Shown here: piece by piece, positions 1 to 9,613 of the stretch
How positions within the stretch are numbered: position 1 is the stretch's first letter
Layout: every line of letters starts with the position of its first letter
Assembly (NCBI GenBank): GCA_003170375.1
Contig: PMZN01000195.1
Coordinates: forward strand, 5,840-15,452
Reading direction: 5' to 3'
Source: Acidimicrobiaceae bacterium
GTDB taxonomy: Bacteria; Actinomycetota; Acidimicrobiia; Acidimicrobiales; Bog-793
DNA length: 9,613 nucleotides
Notes under the pieces: model-generated
Databases searched by the model: none
Told to the model about the DNA's origin: nothing
The model's input: the letters and a program-made list of their open reading frames with translations, nothing else
Translations under genes and position numbers: made by a program

Positions 1-870
1 AACTGGCGCATGGGGAGGTTCATCGCCGAATCAGGTGTGAAGCTGTTCCAGATCGAGACGACGCTCAACACCGACACCTTCCCCAAGGAGCTCGGCTTCC
101 TGCAAAAGCGCGAGTGGGAGTGGTCGCTCAAGGACCGAGCCAGCTTCCTGGCAACCTCCAGCGCTCTAGGACGGACCCCGGGTGGGCTGAGCCGCAAGAT
201 CTTCCACTCGGTTTACGCGCCGCACGACCTCACCTCGGTCCAGGCGGGCGCCGTCGAGGCCGTGCACGAGGCCACGCTCGCCAACCTCTTCCGCCAGCAG
301 CTCGTCGAGGTCTCGGGGCAGACCGACGTGCTCACGATGGGACTGCCTTACATCGGCCCTTACAACGTCAACTCGACCATGAACCCGATCCTCGTCGCCT
401 GCTTGGGGCTCGGCTACTTCTTCAACCTCTATCGCGGCAAGCCCCTGGTGCGTGAAGGCGGCGTGGTGATCATCTCGCACCCGACGCCATGGGAGTTCAA
501 CCCCGTTCATCATCCCAGCTACATCGACTTCTTCGAGCAGGTCCTGGCCGAGACCACCGACATGTTCGAGATCGAGGCCAAATACGAAGAGTCCTTTGCC
601 ACCGATCCCTGGTACGTACACCTCTACCGGACGAGCTACGCCTACCACGGCGTCCACCCCCTCTACATGTGGTACTGGTGCGCCCACGCGCTTGCGCACC
701 TCGGTCGCGTGATCGTCGTCGGAGGTGACCGGGCGGCCGTTCGCCGGCTGGGCTTCTCCCCCGCCTCGACGCTCGAGGATGCCCTCGAGCTTGCCGAGGA
801 CGTCGTCGGCAGGGACCCGACCATCACGCACCTCCGCGTGCCCCCTTTGCTGATGGCGGAGGTCACGTGA
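1..870 (+). CDS. LarA-like (lactate racemase domain, DUF2088) protein, 5'-truncated by the window
   Basis: The frame is open from base 1, so the gene most likely begins upstream; about 290 C-terminal residues are visible, against roughly 420 for full LarA-family proteins. The ATG at 10 has no ribosome binding site within the window and is probably an internal Met. The visible part resembles the C-terminal domain of nickel-pincer-dependent racemases: a 'PLVREGGVVIIS' segment (the position of the family's K-PGG-I/V strand), then a stretch rich in His, Tyr and Trp, then 'RVIVVGG' and 'LGFSPASTLEDALELA', which matches the usual LarA ending. The N-terminal catalytic domain lies outside the window, so the substrate cannot be judged. 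Members outside the lar operon may act on other 2-hydroxy acids (family knowledge). The gene overlaps the acyltransferase start by GTGA, so it is translationally coupled to a lipid enzyme rather than to larB/C/E-type genes. Family assignment is fairly sure; lactate as substrate is not. Confidence 0.72.
   Translation, partial: NWRMGRFIAESGVKLFQIETTLNTDTFPKELGFLQKREWEWSLKDRASFLATSSALGRTPGGLSRKIFHSVYAPHDLTSVQAGAVEAVHEATLANLFRQQLVEVSGQTDVLTMGLPYIGPYNVNSTMNPILVACLGLGYFFNLYRGKPLVREGGVVIISHPTPWEFNPVHHPSYIDFFEQVLAETTDMFEIEAKYEESFATDPWYVHLYRTSYAYHGVHPLYMWYWCAHALAHLGRVIVVGGDRAAVRRLGFSPASTLEDALELAEDVVGRDPTITHLRVPPLLMAEVT
858..862 (+). promoter_or_regulatory. Ribosome binding site of the acyltransferase gene
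   Basis: GGAGG lies inside the end of the LarA-like gene, 4 nt before the GTG at 867. It supports the GTG start, which overlaps the preceding stop as GTGA. Confidence 0.6.
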
Positions 871-3179: not shown

Positions 3180-3605
3180 TCATGCCGACAACCACCCGAT
3201 CAGGAACGACCCCAAGATAACCGAGAGCACACTTGCCGAGATCGCCGTGAACAACCAATCACGCCGTCGCGCGAACGCGACGGCACTGGTGACGAGCCCT
3301 GCGACGGGAGTCAGGATGAGCACCAGAACCCCGGCGACGATTATCGCCTCACCACTGCCGCGCCCGATCCCGTCCCACACAGCGACGAACGAATGCGGGA
3401 AGCTCGCACTTGCTCTGAGGTGGGCCTGTTCGACAGCGTGCGAGTCGAACGCTGCCGGATCACCGACGAGGCCGACGAGGTATCCCGTCAGGAGGATCGC
3501 CGCGCTCACGAGCACGCCCGCATGCAACACCCTCCCCACCGCAGCGCGCACGCCACGCGGTGAGGGCGGCGTCAGGGCACCATACCCACGAGCCAGTGGA
3601 GCCAT
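3180..3605 (-). CDS. DUF1634 membrane protein, partner of the TSUP transporter
   Basis: A 141-aa integral membrane protein. The ATG at 3605 shares one base with the transporter stop (TGATG), which selects it over an open extension upstream that runs into the transporter gene. Three hydrophobic helices are visible: about 21-45 ('GRVLHAGVLVSAAILLTGYL'), about 80-106 ('AIIVAGVLVLILTP') and about 114-138 ('TAISASVLSVILGSFLIG'). The L-I-x-T-P-V turn after helix 2 and the short R-R-D loop before helix 3 are typical of DUF1634. This family is commonly encoded beside TauE/SafE (TSUP) transporters (family knowledge), exactly as here. Its biochemical role is undefined; an accessory subunit of the transporter is the natural inference. 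The stop overlaps a possible start of the regulator gene (ATGA at 3183-3180). Confidence 0.85.
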   Translation of the reverse strand: MAPLARGYGALTPPSPRGVRAAVGRVLHAGVLVSAAILLTGYLVGLVGDPAAFDSHAVEQAHLRASASFPHSFVAVWDGIGRGSGEAIIVAGVLVLILTPVAGLVTSAVAFARRRDWLFTAISASVLSVILGSFLIGWLSA

Positions 3606-4495
3606 CAACCAATCCCCTTCCAGATCATCTGGACGGCGACCACACCGAGGACGCTCACAAAGAGCACCCGGAGACGATCGGAGCGCATGCCCGCGAGCCA
3701 CTTGGATCCCTGCGTCGCTCCCAAGAGGACGCCGATCGCGACCGGGCCGGCGATGAGCGGATCGATGTCACCCCGAGCGAAATACACCACCGCGCTCGCT
3801 GCCGCAGTCAGCCCGATCAACAGGTTGCTCGTAGCGGTCGAGACTTTCATCGGGATGTGCATCGCCAAGTCCATCGCAGGCACTTTCAGCACGCCCGAGC
3901 CGATGCCGAGCAAGCCGCTCAGGGTCCCCGCAAGGTACATGAGCCCGAGGCCGAGCCCGGTGTTGACCACGACGTAGGGCACTTCCAAGCCTTCCGCCTC
4001 GTCGAAGTAGGCCGAATGAAGCGCAAGTCGGTCGGCCAGCGCGCCGCCGCGATCGACTCCTTCCGTGAAGGCGACGGCCACGCCGATTGTCGCCATCGCA
4101 GGGATCGGGTCTTTCGCCACCGGAATCCGACGCTTGCGGACCATCTGCACCCCGGAGACTGCGAGAACGATCCCGAACAGCGCGAACAGGAAACGGGCAT
4201 CGAACACACCGGCCAGGAGTGCGCCCGTCACCGCCCCGAGTGTCGTCGCAAGCGCGAGAAACGTGGCGACCCGCAGATTGGTGATGCTCTCGGTCACGTT
4301 CCTCGCGGCCCCCGCCGAAGAGGTGGCCGCCACCGCCACGATCGAAGTCCCTATCGCAAGCCGGATGTCGAGGTGAAAGACCAGAGTGAGCACGGGCACG
4401 ACCACGAAGCCGCCGCCGAGGCCCAGAAGAGAGCCCAGCACGCCAGCCAGGATCGAGACCCCGAAAAGCACTAGTGACAGCTCGACGATGGTCAC
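3605..4495 (-). CDS. TSUP family (TauE/SafE) membrane transporter
   Basis: A 296-aa polytopic membrane protein with the two-repeat layout of TSUP permeases. The first repeat begins with 'GSLLGLGGGFVVVPVL' (21-36) and the second with 'GLLGIGSGVLKVPAM' (194-208), each followed by more helices; a soluble-looking loop of about 120-175 sits between the halves. TSUP proteins export or import sulfite, sulfonates, thiosulfate or similar organic anions; the substrate cannot be read from this sequence. I chose GTG 4495 because the helix starts right after it and a good promoter ends 7 nt upstream with no Shine-Dalgarno, suggesting a leaderless mRNA. The frame is open upstream, and a TTG at 4531 would add 12 polar residues, but that codon lies in the proposed -35 box. 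First gene of a three-gene unit with DUF1634 and a GntR regulator; upstream lies a plus-strand LysR gene. Confidence 0.88.
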   Translation of the reverse strand: MTIVELSLVLFGVSILAGVLGSLLGLGGGFVVVPVLTLVFHLDIRLAIGTSIVAVAATSSAGAARNVTESITNLRVATFLALATTLGAVTGALLAGVFDARFLFALFGIVLAVSGVQMVRKRRIPVAKDPIPAMATIGVAVAFTEGVDRGGALADRLALHSAYFDEAEGLEVPYVVVNTGLGLGLMYLAGTLSGLLGIGSGVLKVPAMDLAMHIPMKVSTATSNLLIGLTAAASAVVYFARGDIDPLIAGPVAIGVLLGATQGSKWLAGMRSDRLRVLFVSVLGVVAVQMIWKGIG

Positions 4496-4502
4496 GAACG
4501 GG

Positions 4503-4531
4503 AGTCTACATTTGTTCGTACAATCGGACAA
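4503..4531 (-). promoter_or_regulatory. Promoter of the transporter operon with a GntR-like operator in its spacer
   Basis: Read on the minus strand: -35 TTGTCC (4531-4526), a 17-bp spacer, and -10 TAGACT (4508-4503), then 7 nt to the GTG at 4495. Each box matches the sigma-70 consensus at 4 of 6 positions and has the TANNNT form of actinobacterial -10 elements. The spacer contains TTGTACGAACAA (4523-4512), symmetric at 10 of 12 positions, with the GT-N4-AC outline of GntR/HutC operators (centre CG rather than the usual TA). A repressor there would block polymerase. The GntR gene of the same operon is the obvious candidate (inference). Confidence 0.5.
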
Positions 4532-4697
4532 CTATGGATCTACGGCGAGTCCCGTGCGCTCTTGGCAGCCGAGATTGCTCGCTGCGCGCAGGCGCGCGCA
4601 TCGGCCTCAGGCGAAGGGACCGCCCCCGCCTCGCCGTGTACCCGGGCCGAGGCCCCTAGCCGCTGACGTGCGCCGAGCAAACTTGCCTCCAGACGCG
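4532..4697. other. Intergenic stretch upstream of the transporter promoter
   Basis: This part of the gap between the transporter and lysR has open frames on both strands, but none has a credible start or a recognisable product. A GC-only self-complementary run (GCGCGC-AG-GCGCGC near 4584-4597) and GGGCC-GA-GGCCC near 4644-4655 are short and have no U-tract. I see no gene in it. Confidence 0.4.
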
Positions 4698-4772
4698 GAG
4701 AAAGGGCCGGTGGGGGGGATACCGGCCCCTTCTCAAGACTCTTCAGTCGCTGGAGGGGGGATTCCGCCACTG
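4698..4772 (-). ncRNA. Candidate 6C small RNA (two C-loop hairpins)
   Basis: On the minus strand two hairpins follow each other. Hairpin 1 (4772-4744) pairs CAGU-G-GC-GGA with UCC-A-GC-G-ACUG, one bulge and one G/G mismatch, around the loop AUCCCCCC. Hairpin 2 (4734-4698) is a 14-bp stem, GAGAAGGGGCCGGU with ACCGGCCCUUUCUC, around the loop AUCCCCCCC. The linker is AAGAGUCUU. The single imperfect pair of stem 2 is G-U when read on the minus strand but A/C on the plus strand, which favours a minus-strand RNA. Two consecutive hairpins each with six or more C in the loop is the definition of the actinobacterial 6C RNA, a roughly 90-nt sRNA known from Mycobacterium and Streptomyces, whose C-rich loops are reported in mycobacteria to base-pair with mRNA targets. 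Hairpin 2 with its CCCUUUCU end could also serve as terminator. The true 5' end is probably about 4780. Confidence 0.72.
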
Positions 4773-4784
4773 AGGTCTAGATAC

Positions 4785-4813
4785 ATAGTGCACGATTTCA
4801 CAGCATCGGTCAA
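4785..4813 (-). promoter_or_regulatory. Possible promoter of the small RNA
   Basis: On the minus strand TTGACC (4813-4808) is a strong -35 match. After 17 bp comes CACTAT (4790-4785), a weak -10 that keeps the A and T at positions 2 and 6. Initiation near 4778 would put the first C-loop hairpin almost at the 5' end of the RNA. The -35 overlaps the dyad at 4805-4828. Confidence 0.35.
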
Positions 4814-4828
4814 ACAGTTCTTACCGAT
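4805..4828. promoter_or_regulatory. Dyad ATCGGT-N12-ACCGAT, possible LysR-type operator
   Basis: A perfect 6-bp inverted repeat (4805-4810 and 4823-4828) lies 20 bp upstream of the lysR start and covers both the presumed -35 region of lysR and the TTGACC box of the small RNA. LysR-type regulators usually bind dyads beside their own gene and control the divergent unit. The N12 spacing is not the textbook T-N11-A, so the assignment is inference. Confidence 0.4.
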
Positions 4829-4834
4829 AGCTGA

Positions 4835-4840
4835 TATCGT
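4835..4840 (+). promoter_or_regulatory. Possible -10 element of lysR, leaderless start
   Basis: TATCGT (TANNNT form) sits 8 nt before the ATG at 4849. No Shine-Dalgarno is present (the bases before ATG are GATTGAG). This layout would start transcription at or next to the A of ATG. No clear -35 box is seen. Confidence 0.35.
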
Positions 4841-4848
4841 AGATTGAG

Positions 4849-5814
4849 ATGGAGCTACGCCAGCTGAGCGCAGTCGTCGGGATCGCCGATCATGGTTCGT
4901 TCTCTGCGGCTGCCGACGCGCTCCAAACCGTCCAGTCGAACATCTCTGCGCACGTGAAAAAGCTCGAGCGGGAGCTCGGCTGCGAGCTGGTCGATCGTTC
5001 CACAGGCCAGTTGACCGAGGCCGGCGCACTCGTCGTTGCCCGCTCGAGGCGAGTTCAAGTCGAGCTCGACGCGCTGCTCTCTGACGTGCTCGCCCTCACC
5101 CGCGAAGTCGCCGGAACCGTACGGATCGGGATCATCGGCACGACCGCCCGGTGGCTCGTTCCGCAGTTGCTACGCACGGTCCCCCAGCGATACCCCCACC
5201 TTCACCTGGTATTCGTCGAATTGACAAGCACCAAGCTCGATGTCCAGCTCGCAACGGGAGAGGTCGACCTCGCCGTGCTCAACCTTCCTGCGACGGGAAG
5301 CGACCTCGCGCTGACCCCCCTTTTCGAGGAGGATCTCGTCCTGGTCGTACCCGTCGACCACCCGCTCGCAAGTTCGCGCGAGGTCAGCCTCCGCGCGCTG
5401 AAGGGGATGCCCCTGTTGCTGCCCGTCGCCGGGACGGCGTTTCGCGCCGACCTCGACGCCGCCCTCAGTTCCACCGGCACCACGCTCCTGGCGCGGGCCG
5501 AGATCGACGGGACTCGCCTCATCGCCTCGCTCACCTTCGAGGGCTGGGGACCGTCCATCCTGCCGGCGACTGCTGTGCCCGGCTACCTACGTGACAACTT
5601 TGCCCTTGTGAAGCTCACCGAGATCCCCCGGCGGCTCGTCGGGGTCGTCCAGCGGGCGACGGGACTACCCTCGGCACCGGCACGAGCCGTACTCGATCTG
5701 CTGACCGAGATCGTCTTCGATCCCTCCAGGATCCCCGAGGGGCTGACCCCGGTGTCCCCCGATTCTCCGCGCCCGCGCGCCGACACCCGGCGATCAGGCG
5801 TCGTCCTGCTATGA
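4849..5814 (+). CDS. LysR-type transcriptional regulator
   Basis: A 321-aa protein of normal LysR length. The N-terminal winged helix-turn-helix spans about 1-60 and carries the family pattern 'GSFSAAADALQTVQSNISAHVKKLE' in two parts, with 'LVDRSTGQLTEAG' as the wing. A linker helix (about 60-88) leads to the periplasmic-binding-like effector domain, which starts at 'GTVRIGIIGTTARWLVPQLL' and includes 'GEVDLAVLNLPA' and 'EEDLVLVVPVDHPLA'. The last 25 or so residues are Pro- and Arg-rich and look disordered. The effector is unknown. It is transcribed away from the TSUP operon, with the candidate small RNA between them, so either may be its target (inference). Its end overlaps the GNAT gene tail to tail by 6 bases. 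Confidence 0.92.
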   Translation: MELRQLSAVVGIADHGSFSAAADALQTVQSNISAHVKKLERELGCELVDRSTGQLTEAGALVVARSRRVQVELDALLSDVLALTREVAGTVRIGIIGTTARWLVPQLLRTVPQRYPHLHLVFVELTSTKLDVQLATGEVDLAVLNLPATGSDLALTPLFEEDLVLVVPVDHPLASSREVSLRALKGMPLLLPVAGTAFRADLDAALSSTGTTLLARAEIDGTRLIASLTFEGWGPSILPATAVPGYLRDNFALVKLTEIPRRLVGVVQRATGLPSAPARAVLDLLTEIVFDPSRIPEGLTPVSPDSPRPRADTRRSGVVLL

Positions 5815-8488: not shown

Positions 8489-9544
8489 TCAGTCGAGCGA
8501 GATGGGCTCGTCGTCGTCGGCCAAGCCTCCGGCTCCGATCGGCGTCTCAACCGCAAGAGCCGCCTTCTCGGCTACCAGGTTACGGATCCGCTGGTGGAGC
8601 TCGATCATGAGCTCGGGGCTCTCCCGTAGGAATTGCTTGGCATTCTCACGGCCCTGGCCGAGCTGCTCGCCCTCGTAGGTGTACCAGGCGCCGGACTTCT
8701 TCGCGATCCCCAGGTCGACGGCTACGTCGAGCACGGAGCCCTCTCGGCTGATGCCCTTGCCGTAGACGATGTCGAACTCGGCCATGCGGAAGGGCGGAGC
8801 GCACTTGTTCTTCACGACCTTGACCCGCGTGCGGTTGCCGATGACCTCGGCTCCGTCCTTGATGGACTCCAAACGACGAATATCGAGCCGGACCGAGGCG
8901 TAGAACTTGAGCGCCCGCCCTCCGGGCGTGACTTCGGGCGATCCGTAGACCACGCCGATCTTCTCTCGCAGCTGATTGATGAACAGCGCGATCGTCGATG
9001 ACTTGCTGAGCGTGCCCGTGAGCTTGCGGAGAGCCTGGGACATGAGGCGAGCCTGCAGGCCGACGTGGGTATCGCCCATGTCACCTTCGAGCTCGGCACG
9101 TGGTGTGAGCGCCGCCACCGAGTCGACGACGATTACGTCCATAGCCCCGGAGCGGATCAGCATGTCGGCGATCTCGAGCGCTTGCTCGCCCGTGTCGGGC
9201 TGGGAGATCAGCAATTCGTCGATGTCGACACCGATGGCTTTTGCGTAGACGGGGTCGAGCGCGTGCTCCGCATCGATGTAGGCGCAGATTCCCCCATTAC
9301 GCTGTGCTTCCGCAACTACGTGCAGCGCGAGGGTCGACTTGCCAGAGGACTCCGGTCCGAACACCTCAATTATCCGCCCTCTCGGGAGCCCACCGATCCC
9401 GAGAGCGAGGTCAAGGGCCATCGCGCCAGTCGAGATCACTTCGATCCCCATTCCGGTGTGCTCACCCATGCGCATGACTGAGCCCTTTCCGAACTGCTTC
9501 TCGATCTGGCTGAGTGCCGCCTCGAGTGCCTTGTCACGCTCCAT
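8489..9544 (-). CDS. recA: Recombinase RecA
   Basis: A 351-aa RecA, the ATP-dependent strand-exchange protein of homologous repair and co-protease for LexA cleavage. It has the N-terminal polymerisation helix '[22 protein letters not shown]' (in parts), Walker [10 protein letters not shown] (63-71), 'IDAEHALDP' (90-98), Walker B 'VIVVD' (137-141), loop L1 near 150-160, loop L2 from '[20 protein letters not shown]' (190-209), and an acidic C-terminal tail ending DDDEPISLD. No intein is present. ATG 9544 is chosen over the in-frame GTG 9586 because it gives the usual RecA N-terminus and has GAGGAG (9562-9557) 12 nt upstream. In the 69 bases upstream no GAAC-N4-GTTC LexA box is visible; it may lie outside the window. 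No recX follows: the next gene downstream is convergent. Confidence 0.98.
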
Positions 9545-9613
9545 CGTCGGGTCTCTCTCCTCTCGCGCTGCTTGTCGACGGTTCACTTCCGAGACCGGAC
9601 CTCTCTGCTGTGC

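What the first reader, a model, noticed from the sequence alone, without database searches (positions are those of the whole stretch)
4698..4790. Unannotated 6C-type small RNA between the TSUP operon and lysR
Two adjacent minus-strand hairpins each have a loop of AU followed by six or seven C, the defining layout of the actinobacterial 6C RNA. Stem 2 is fully paired (with one G-U) only when read as minus-strand RNA, so its strand can be assigned. Gene callers would leave this gap empty. C-loop RNAs can pair with G-rich ribosome binding sites such as the GGAGG and GAGGAG sites in this same window. I recall a conserved linker resembling ACUGAAGAGUC in the family, which the window also has, but that is memory and should be checked.
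Basis: partly seen in the sequence, partly recalled or inferred. Interest (0 to 1): 0.72.

Follow-up and report, generated by a model that had tools for sequence, protein, structure and literature searches.

The report
C-loop small RNA beside LysR regulator
In Acidimicrobiales bacteria a conserved two-hairpin RNA structure with runs of C in both loops sits head to head with a LysR-type regulator gene; it is predicted to be made as a small RNA under that regulator's control, and would likely silence other genes by covering their G-rich ribosome-binding sites.

Summary
In detail: two adjacent C-loop hairpins lie on the minus strand (window 4698-4772). They belong to a structured RNA conserved in Acidimicrobiales. 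A covariance model built here finds it in 112 of 298 genomes of the order. All four helices covary (22 of 25 pairs; 322 doubly changed cells against 101 in shuffles), and both loops keep five or more C in 79 of 80 distinct sequences.

It is not a member of Rfam 6C as modelled: RF01066 matches neither the window nor eight relatives, and the new model reaches 1 of 16 RF01066 loci, weakly.

The new part is the partner. Of 80 loci chosen by their LysR gene, 68 have the RNA divergent within 400 nt. A GATR-N5-YATC dyad starts 48-76 nt upstream of the RNA in 46 of 70 (shuffles 0.12). Where LysR has moved 2.4 kb away, the dyad stays with the RNA. In the window's genome the combined dyad-promoter pattern occurs once, here.

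Most likely: a LysR-controlled trans-acting small RNA that blocks ribosome-binding sites as mycobacterial B11/6C does. Transcription, LysR binding and targets are untested.

The parts
4682..4784 (-). structured RNA (match to model R1, all 105 model positions); predicted small RNA, start about 4777-4782
   Evidence: R1 89.9 bits (the window's own sequence, as L005, is one of the 24 that built R1); covariation. Transcription not tested.
4744..4772 (-). hairpin 1 with C6 loop (C at 4755-4760); outer pairs GAC 4775-4777 with GUC 4737-4739
   Evidence: sequence, helices 1-3
4698..4734 (-). hairpin 2, 14 pairs, C7 loop (C at 4712-4718)
   Evidence: helix 4
4689..4697 (-). conserved tail CGCGTCTGG just 3' of hairpin 2; role unknown
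   Evidence: CGCGTC in 49 of 80 distinct sequences; longer tail pattern has one exact match in the genome
4785..4790 (-). predicted -10 (CACTAT, weak in this copy)
   Evidence: 17-nt spacer to TTGACC; family alignment; not called by the promoter scan
4805..4814 (-). predicted -35 and conserved GAT half-site (TTTGACCGAT)
4826..4838 (.). dyad GATATCAGCTATC, predicted LysR operator
   Evidence: binding not tested
4849..5814 (+). divergent LysR-type regulator gene (HTH_1 and LysR_substrate)
   Evidence: Pfam; beside the RNA in 68 of 80 LysR-chosen loci and 24 of 30 BLAST-chosen loci

Best explanation
A conserved two-hairpin RNA with C-rich loops lies divergent to a LysR-type regulator gene; it is predicted to be transcribed as a small RNA of about 100 nt from a promoter whose operator that LysR protein would bind, and it would act in trans by pairing its C-loops with G-rich ribosome-binding sites to lower translation. 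Shown: the structure, its conservation, the C-loops, the divergent LysR neighbour, and a conserved dyad-plus-promoter sequence that stays with the RNA when LysR is displaced. Inferred: transcription, its start and end; control (most likely activation) by LysR, as for VtlR with AbcR1; and pairing with ribosome-binding sites, by analogy with mycobacterial B11/6C. The inducer of LysR and the target mRNAs are unknown.
For: Model R1 matches in 112 of 298 genomes of the order. Covariation in all four helices, far above shuffled and slid controls. C runs of five or more in both loops in 79 of 80. RNA divergent to LysR within 400 nt in 68 of 80 LysR loci; LysR beside the RNA in 24 of 30 BLAST loci and 23 of 30 best R1 loci. 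Dyad at 48-76 nt upstream of the RNA in 46 of 70 loci, shuffles mean 0.12, maximum 2. In L098 and L099, with LysR 2.4 kb away, and in L111, L117, L122, L124, L141, with LysR 110-132 nt away, the dyad is still 54-55 nt from the RNA; L098 and L099 have no dyad next to LysR. Of 8 LysR loci without an R1 match and not cut by a contig end, only L148 has the dyad, and L148 shows one C-loop hairpin by eye. Dyad-promoter pattern: 41 matches in 33 of 60 genomes, none for the reversed control. Following gene varies: HAD-PlsC 43, MurT 8, TSUP 2, other 15, contig end 2, of 70. B11 represses through either C-loop on a six-G site (PMC10470900, passages); VtlR, a LysR protein, directly activates three small RNAs (PMC7486931, passages).
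Against: No expression data. The window's own -10 is poor and the promoter and terminator scan calls neither a promoter nor a terminator at the RNA; no U-tract follows hairpin 2. The strict dyad is not within 60 nt of LysR in 16 of 68 loci, and in nine loci it lies 92-106 nt from the model match (two of these, L133, seen as L025, and L146, show an extra C-loop hairpin by eye). Some loci have the RNA without the LysR, and L077, L081, L082 and L091 have neither dyad nor the -35 motif in the upstream 110 nt. Six extra dyad-promoter sites in five relatives precede what look like protein genes. The review read for 6C draws panD and dnaB as positively regulated, not repressed (PMC8628891, passages). 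No target was searched for.
Confidence: 0.62

Rival explanations
1. The element is a 5' leader or attenuator: the hairpins regulate the next gene on the same strand (HAD-PlsC in most loci, MurT or TSUP in others), and LysR controls that operon through it.
For: A HAD-PlsC gene follows on the same strand in 43 of 70 RNA loci and MurT in 8; in the window TSUP follows on the same strand; a strong hairpin in front of a gene can act as an attenuator.
Against: The RNA is kept while the next gene changes: 15 of 70 have neither of these three genes next, and TSUP is next only in the window's genus. Both C-loops are kept, which a plain attenuator would not need.
Confidence: 0.15
2. The C-loops bind a protein rather than mRNA: the RNA titrates an RNA-binding protein that likes C-runs, with one to three identical sites per RNA.
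For: Repeated near-identical loops, one to three per locus by eye, as in RNAs that titrate proteins (general knowledge, recalled).
Against: The best studied RNA with this layout, B11/6C, acts by pairing with ribosome-binding sites. No candidate protein was sought.
Confidence: 0.1
3. It is a divergent true 6C RNA that the Rfam model fails to reach, inherited from a common actinobacterial ancestor.
For: Same layout: two neighbouring hairpins with C-runs in the loops. A HAD-family gene lies beside 12 of 16 RF01066 loci and beside many loci here. RF01066's cut-off is also missed by C. glutamicum, an accepted 6C bearer.
Against: No RF01066 match even at E<=10; R1 finds 1 of 16 RF01066 loci, at 23.5 bits. 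No LysR at the RF01066 loci tested. The HAD gene is divergent and upstream at the 12 RF01066 loci (coordinates) but downstream on the same strand here, and it is fused to PlsC here.
Confidence: 0.3

Closest known systems
6C RNA (Rfam RF01066; mycobacterial B11, C. glutamicum cgb_03605)
   Same: Two adjacent hairpins with C-runs in both loops; about 100 nt (C. glutamicum 6C, PMC4046766, passages); no flanking protein needed in the structure; B11 loops pair with G-rich ribosome-binding sites.
   Different: Different stems, linker and 5' part; not matched by RF01066. Here the neighbour is a divergent LysR with a dyad; B11 lies between rv3660c and rv3661 (table in PMC8628891, passages), and RF01066 loci here have a HAD gene but no LysR match.
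VtlR with AbcR1/VrsA (Agrobacterium, Brucella)
   Same: A LysR-type protein that directly activates small RNAs and works largely through them (PMC7486931, passages).
   Different: Other bacterial class, other RNAs; abcR1 lies downstream of vtlR and is not head to head with it, and VtlR binds three promoters.
OxyR with OxyS (recalled, no call)
   Same: A LysR-type activator divergent to a small RNA; the LysR profile's best PDB matches are OxyR proteins.
   Different: OxyS has other structure and targets (recalled). No cysteine is invariant or nearly invariant in the 19 aligned LysR orthologues, so an OxyR-type thiol switch is unlikely; the best NCBIfam match is CynR, far below its cut-off.

Membership tests
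6C RNA (RF01066) | score at or above the Rfam gathering cut-off (47 bits) | tested here: not met
   no match in the window, in L005 and eight relatives, at E<=10 locally or at this place genome-wide. C. glutamicum also stays below the cut-off but does show a match.
6C RNA (RF01066) | two adjacent hairpins, each with a run of about six C in the loop | tested here: met
6C RNA (RF01066) | shared sequence or profile with known members | tested here: not met
   R1 over 16 RF01066 loci (8 over cut-off, 8 at 43-46 bits): one weak match, L041, 23.5 bits; linker motif in 0 of 16
6C RNA (RF01066) | expressed as a small RNA of about 100 nt | not testable with these tools
   no expression data on hand
6C RNA (RF01066) | C-loops pair with G-rich ribosome-binding sites | not tested
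   no target search was done; known for B11
LysR-type regulator (the partner protein) | N-terminal HTH_1 and C-terminal LysR_substrate domains over Pfam cut-offs | tested here: met
   62.8 and 129.9 bits
LysR protein with a small RNA it controls (OxyR/OxyS, VtlR/AbcR kind) | conserved genetic link of regulator, operator-like dyad and RNA | tested here: met
LysR protein with a small RNA it controls (OxyR/OxyS, VtlR/AbcR kind) | the regulator binds and activates the RNA promoter | not testable with these tools
   needs EMSA and expression in a lysR mutant

The most novel reading that the evidence does not exclude
A new small-RNA family absent from Rfam: a C-loop regulator of Acidimicrobiales, locked to one dedicated LysR protein whose main or only target in many genomes is this RNA, so that a metabolite signal becomes broad translational repression through one to three interchangeable C-loops. 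It reached the 6C design on its own or split from 6C long ago.
Probability: 0.5. Interest if true: 0.75.

Novelty: new variant of a known kind. Interest (0 to 1): 0.62.

Why it matters
The papers read here leave the input of 6C-type RNAs largely open (a review says B11 is induced by undefined factors; C. glutamicum 6C is said to be in the GlxR network). Here a candidate control element is in plain sight and conserved: one regulator, one dyad, one RNA. That makes the input of a C-loop RNA testable with purified LysR and a short DNA. It also gives Acidimicrobiales a covariance model and a clear first candidate for a trans-acting RNA. Finding the same C-loop layout outside the Rfam model raises the question whether it arose more than once.

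Tried and rejected
Rfam at gathering and at E<=10: no 6C. The four E<=10 matches (mir-1822, HOXA11-AS1_1, GP_knot1, BLV_package) are far below cut-off and were taken as chance. BLAST against plasmids: two short matches of no value. R1 across the phylum: 27 of 198 genomes at E<=0.01, but apart from the window's genome and G056 (same order) all are below 38 bits; of the seven new loci fetched (L172-L178) only L172, which is G056, has a LysR match, so I claim no spread outside the order. RF01066 in the order: 9 of 148 genomes at E<=0.1, one just over cut-off (L180, 47.5 bits); L179-L182 have no LysR match. A TSUP-leader reading was dropped because TSUP is found beside the RNA in 4 of 30 BLAST loci, all from the window's genus. 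The conserved tail as a general terminator motif was dropped: with up to one mismatch 18 matches against 16 for the reversed control, one of them exact, at this RNA.

Rows dropped before counts: A1 used 24 of the 30 BLAST loci (left out L007, N-run upstream; L020 and L021, one hairpin; L025, three hairpins; L029, same as L027; L034, chance match). A4 used 89 sources that I chose from those fetched, giving 88 matches, 80 distinct; duplicates and weak members were left out, so its covariation describes the core of the family. The loci fetched are its best 30 new places only. The upstream alignment holds 43 sequences with LysR-to-RNA distance 60-75 nt, so it was chosen for that spacing. Of the 16 RF01066 loci used as 6C yardstick, 8 are over the cut-off and 8 just below.

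Full report
What is there. On the minus strand the window holds two adjacent hairpins with C6 and C7 loops, in the gap between a TSUP gene (3605-4531, minus) and a lysR gene (4849-5814, plus). The 121-nt stretch folds better than all 200 shuffles (z -3.85). Hairpin 2 carries that signal alone (z -4.70); hairpin 1 alone does not (z -0.16).

It is conserved. BLAST of 100 nt against 98 relatives gave 64 with a match at E<=1, many of them chance; at E<=1e-3 I count 28 of 98 in the listing, the window's own genome included. Twenty-four of the 30 fetched loci were aligned and made into a model of 105 positions and 25 pairs (R1). R1 finds the RNA in 112 of 298 genomes of the order at E<=1e-3. Some genomes carry two or three copies.

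It is an RNA structure. On 80 distinct sequences 93.2% of pair cells are standard (77.8% shuffled); 22 of 25 pairs have changes on both sides (14.9 shuffled); such cells number 322, against 101 shuffled and at most 49 when partners are slid. The alignment was fitted to the model, which leans it towards the structure. G-U cells outnumber A-C cells 86 to 41, which favours the minus strand. Loop 1 holds five or more C in 80 of 80 and loop 2 in 79 of 80. By eye, some loci have one such hairpin (L020, L021, L148, L157) and some three (L025, L146, L200).

Its partner is LysR. tblastn with the window's LysR finds it beside the RNA in 24 of 30 BLAST loci; TSUP is found in 4 of 30, those of the genus. 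Starting from LysR instead, 68 of 80 loci have an R1 match on the opposite strand within 400 nt, 60 of them at E<=1e-3; two more lie about 2.4 kb away and ten have none, of which two (L127, L157) are cut by a contig end. The distance from LysR ATG to the RNA match is 63-68 nt in 35 of the 68 (counted). Of the 30 loci fetched by R1, 23 have the LysR.

The shared DNA looks like a LysR-type control region. Forty-three aligned upstream regions share GATA-N5-TATC, then TTTGACnGAT, then a -10-like element. The dyad GATR-N5-YATC starts 48-76 nt upstream of the RNA match in 46 of 70 loci; base-shuffled sequences give 0.12 on average and 2 at most. Where LysR lies 110-132 nt away (L111, L117, L122, L124, L141) or 2.4 kb away (L098, L099) the dyad keeps its distance to the RNA, and L098 and L099 have no dyad next to LysR. 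In nine other loci the dyad lies 92-106 nt from the model match and 10 nt from LysR; two of these show an extra hairpin by eye. Of eight LysR loci without RNA match and not cut short, one (L148) has the dyad. Dyad plus promoter matches 41 times in 33 of 60 genomes and never in the reversed control; the window's genome (80% complete) has one match, this one. Six extra sites in five relatives stand before what look like protein genes. Against the reading, the window's own -10 is poor and the promoter scan calls nothing here, and four RNA loci without LysR have neither dyad nor the -35 motif (L077, L081, L082, L091).

It is not the leader of one gene. Among 70 RNA loci the next gene on the same strand is HAD-PlsC in 43, MurT-like in 8, TSUP in 2, something else in 15, and 2 run into a contig end (domains). 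HAD-PlsC is common enough that a second role as its leader stays possible.

How it probably works. Mycobacterial B11/6C pairs its C-loops with G-rich ribosome-binding sites; in M. abscessus either loop suffices for a target with six G (PMC10470900, passages). A review says 6C binds panD and dnaB mRNAs, and its figure legend has them positively regulated (PMC8628891, passages), so the sign of regulation is not settled in what I read. The original 6C target paper was not held. LysR control of small RNAs is known from VtlR (PMC7486931, passages). Joined, these give the model: LysR senses a small molecule (inferred), activates the RNA (inferred), and the RNA lowers translation of mRNAs with G-runs (inferred).

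Is it 6C? By Rfam's model, no. R1 in turn matches 1 of 16 RF01066 loci, at 23.5 bits. Eight of 198 genomes of the phylum carry RF01066 over cut-off, all labelled same phylum only, and 1 of 148 in the order, barely. The cut-off is strict: C. glutamicum, an accepted bearer of 6C (PMC4046766, passages), also stays below it. A HAD gene beside both kinds of locus hints at common descent, but in opposite arrangement. I therefore call it a 6C-like RNA and leave descent open. Searches of the open library for 6C RNA with Acidimicrobi, and for Acidimicrobi with sRNA and covariance model, found no paper; subscription papers and supplements were not searched.

What is not known: whether it is transcribed, where it ends (no U-tract follows hairpin 2, and a conserved CGCGTC tail, 49 of 80, does), what LysR senses, and the targets.

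Noticed in passing
window 4689-4697 (minus): A tail CGCGTCYGG just after hairpin 2 is conserved (CGCGTC in 49 of 80 distinct sequences) yet is not a general motif of the genome. Its role is unexplained.
   Followed up: partly
L188-L196: Some genomes carry two or three related two-C-loop RNAs, two of them a few kb apart on one contig (L188, L189); none of these nine loci has the LysR match.
   Followed up: partly
L035-L050, L183, L184: A HAD-family gene lies divergent to the RNA at 12 of 16 RF01066 loci, while a HAD-PlsC fusion follows the RNA at many Acidimicrobiales loci; a possible trace of common ancestry.
   Followed up: partly
L187 near 14536; L204 near 1624; L197, L198, L199, L203: Extra dyad-promoter sites stand before what look like protein genes; the one tested (L187 13886-14452) has no Pfam match. 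They may be further members of the LysR regulon.
   Followed up: partly
window 10-870 (plus): Fragment matching NPN-dependent hydroxyacid isomerase LarAH14/15/16 (NF052592), cut by the window edge.
   Followed up: no
window 8489-9586 (minus): recA (TIGR02012); in L187, where an insertion separates LysR and RNA, a RecA-like frame is still a few kb beyond LysR.
   Followed up: no
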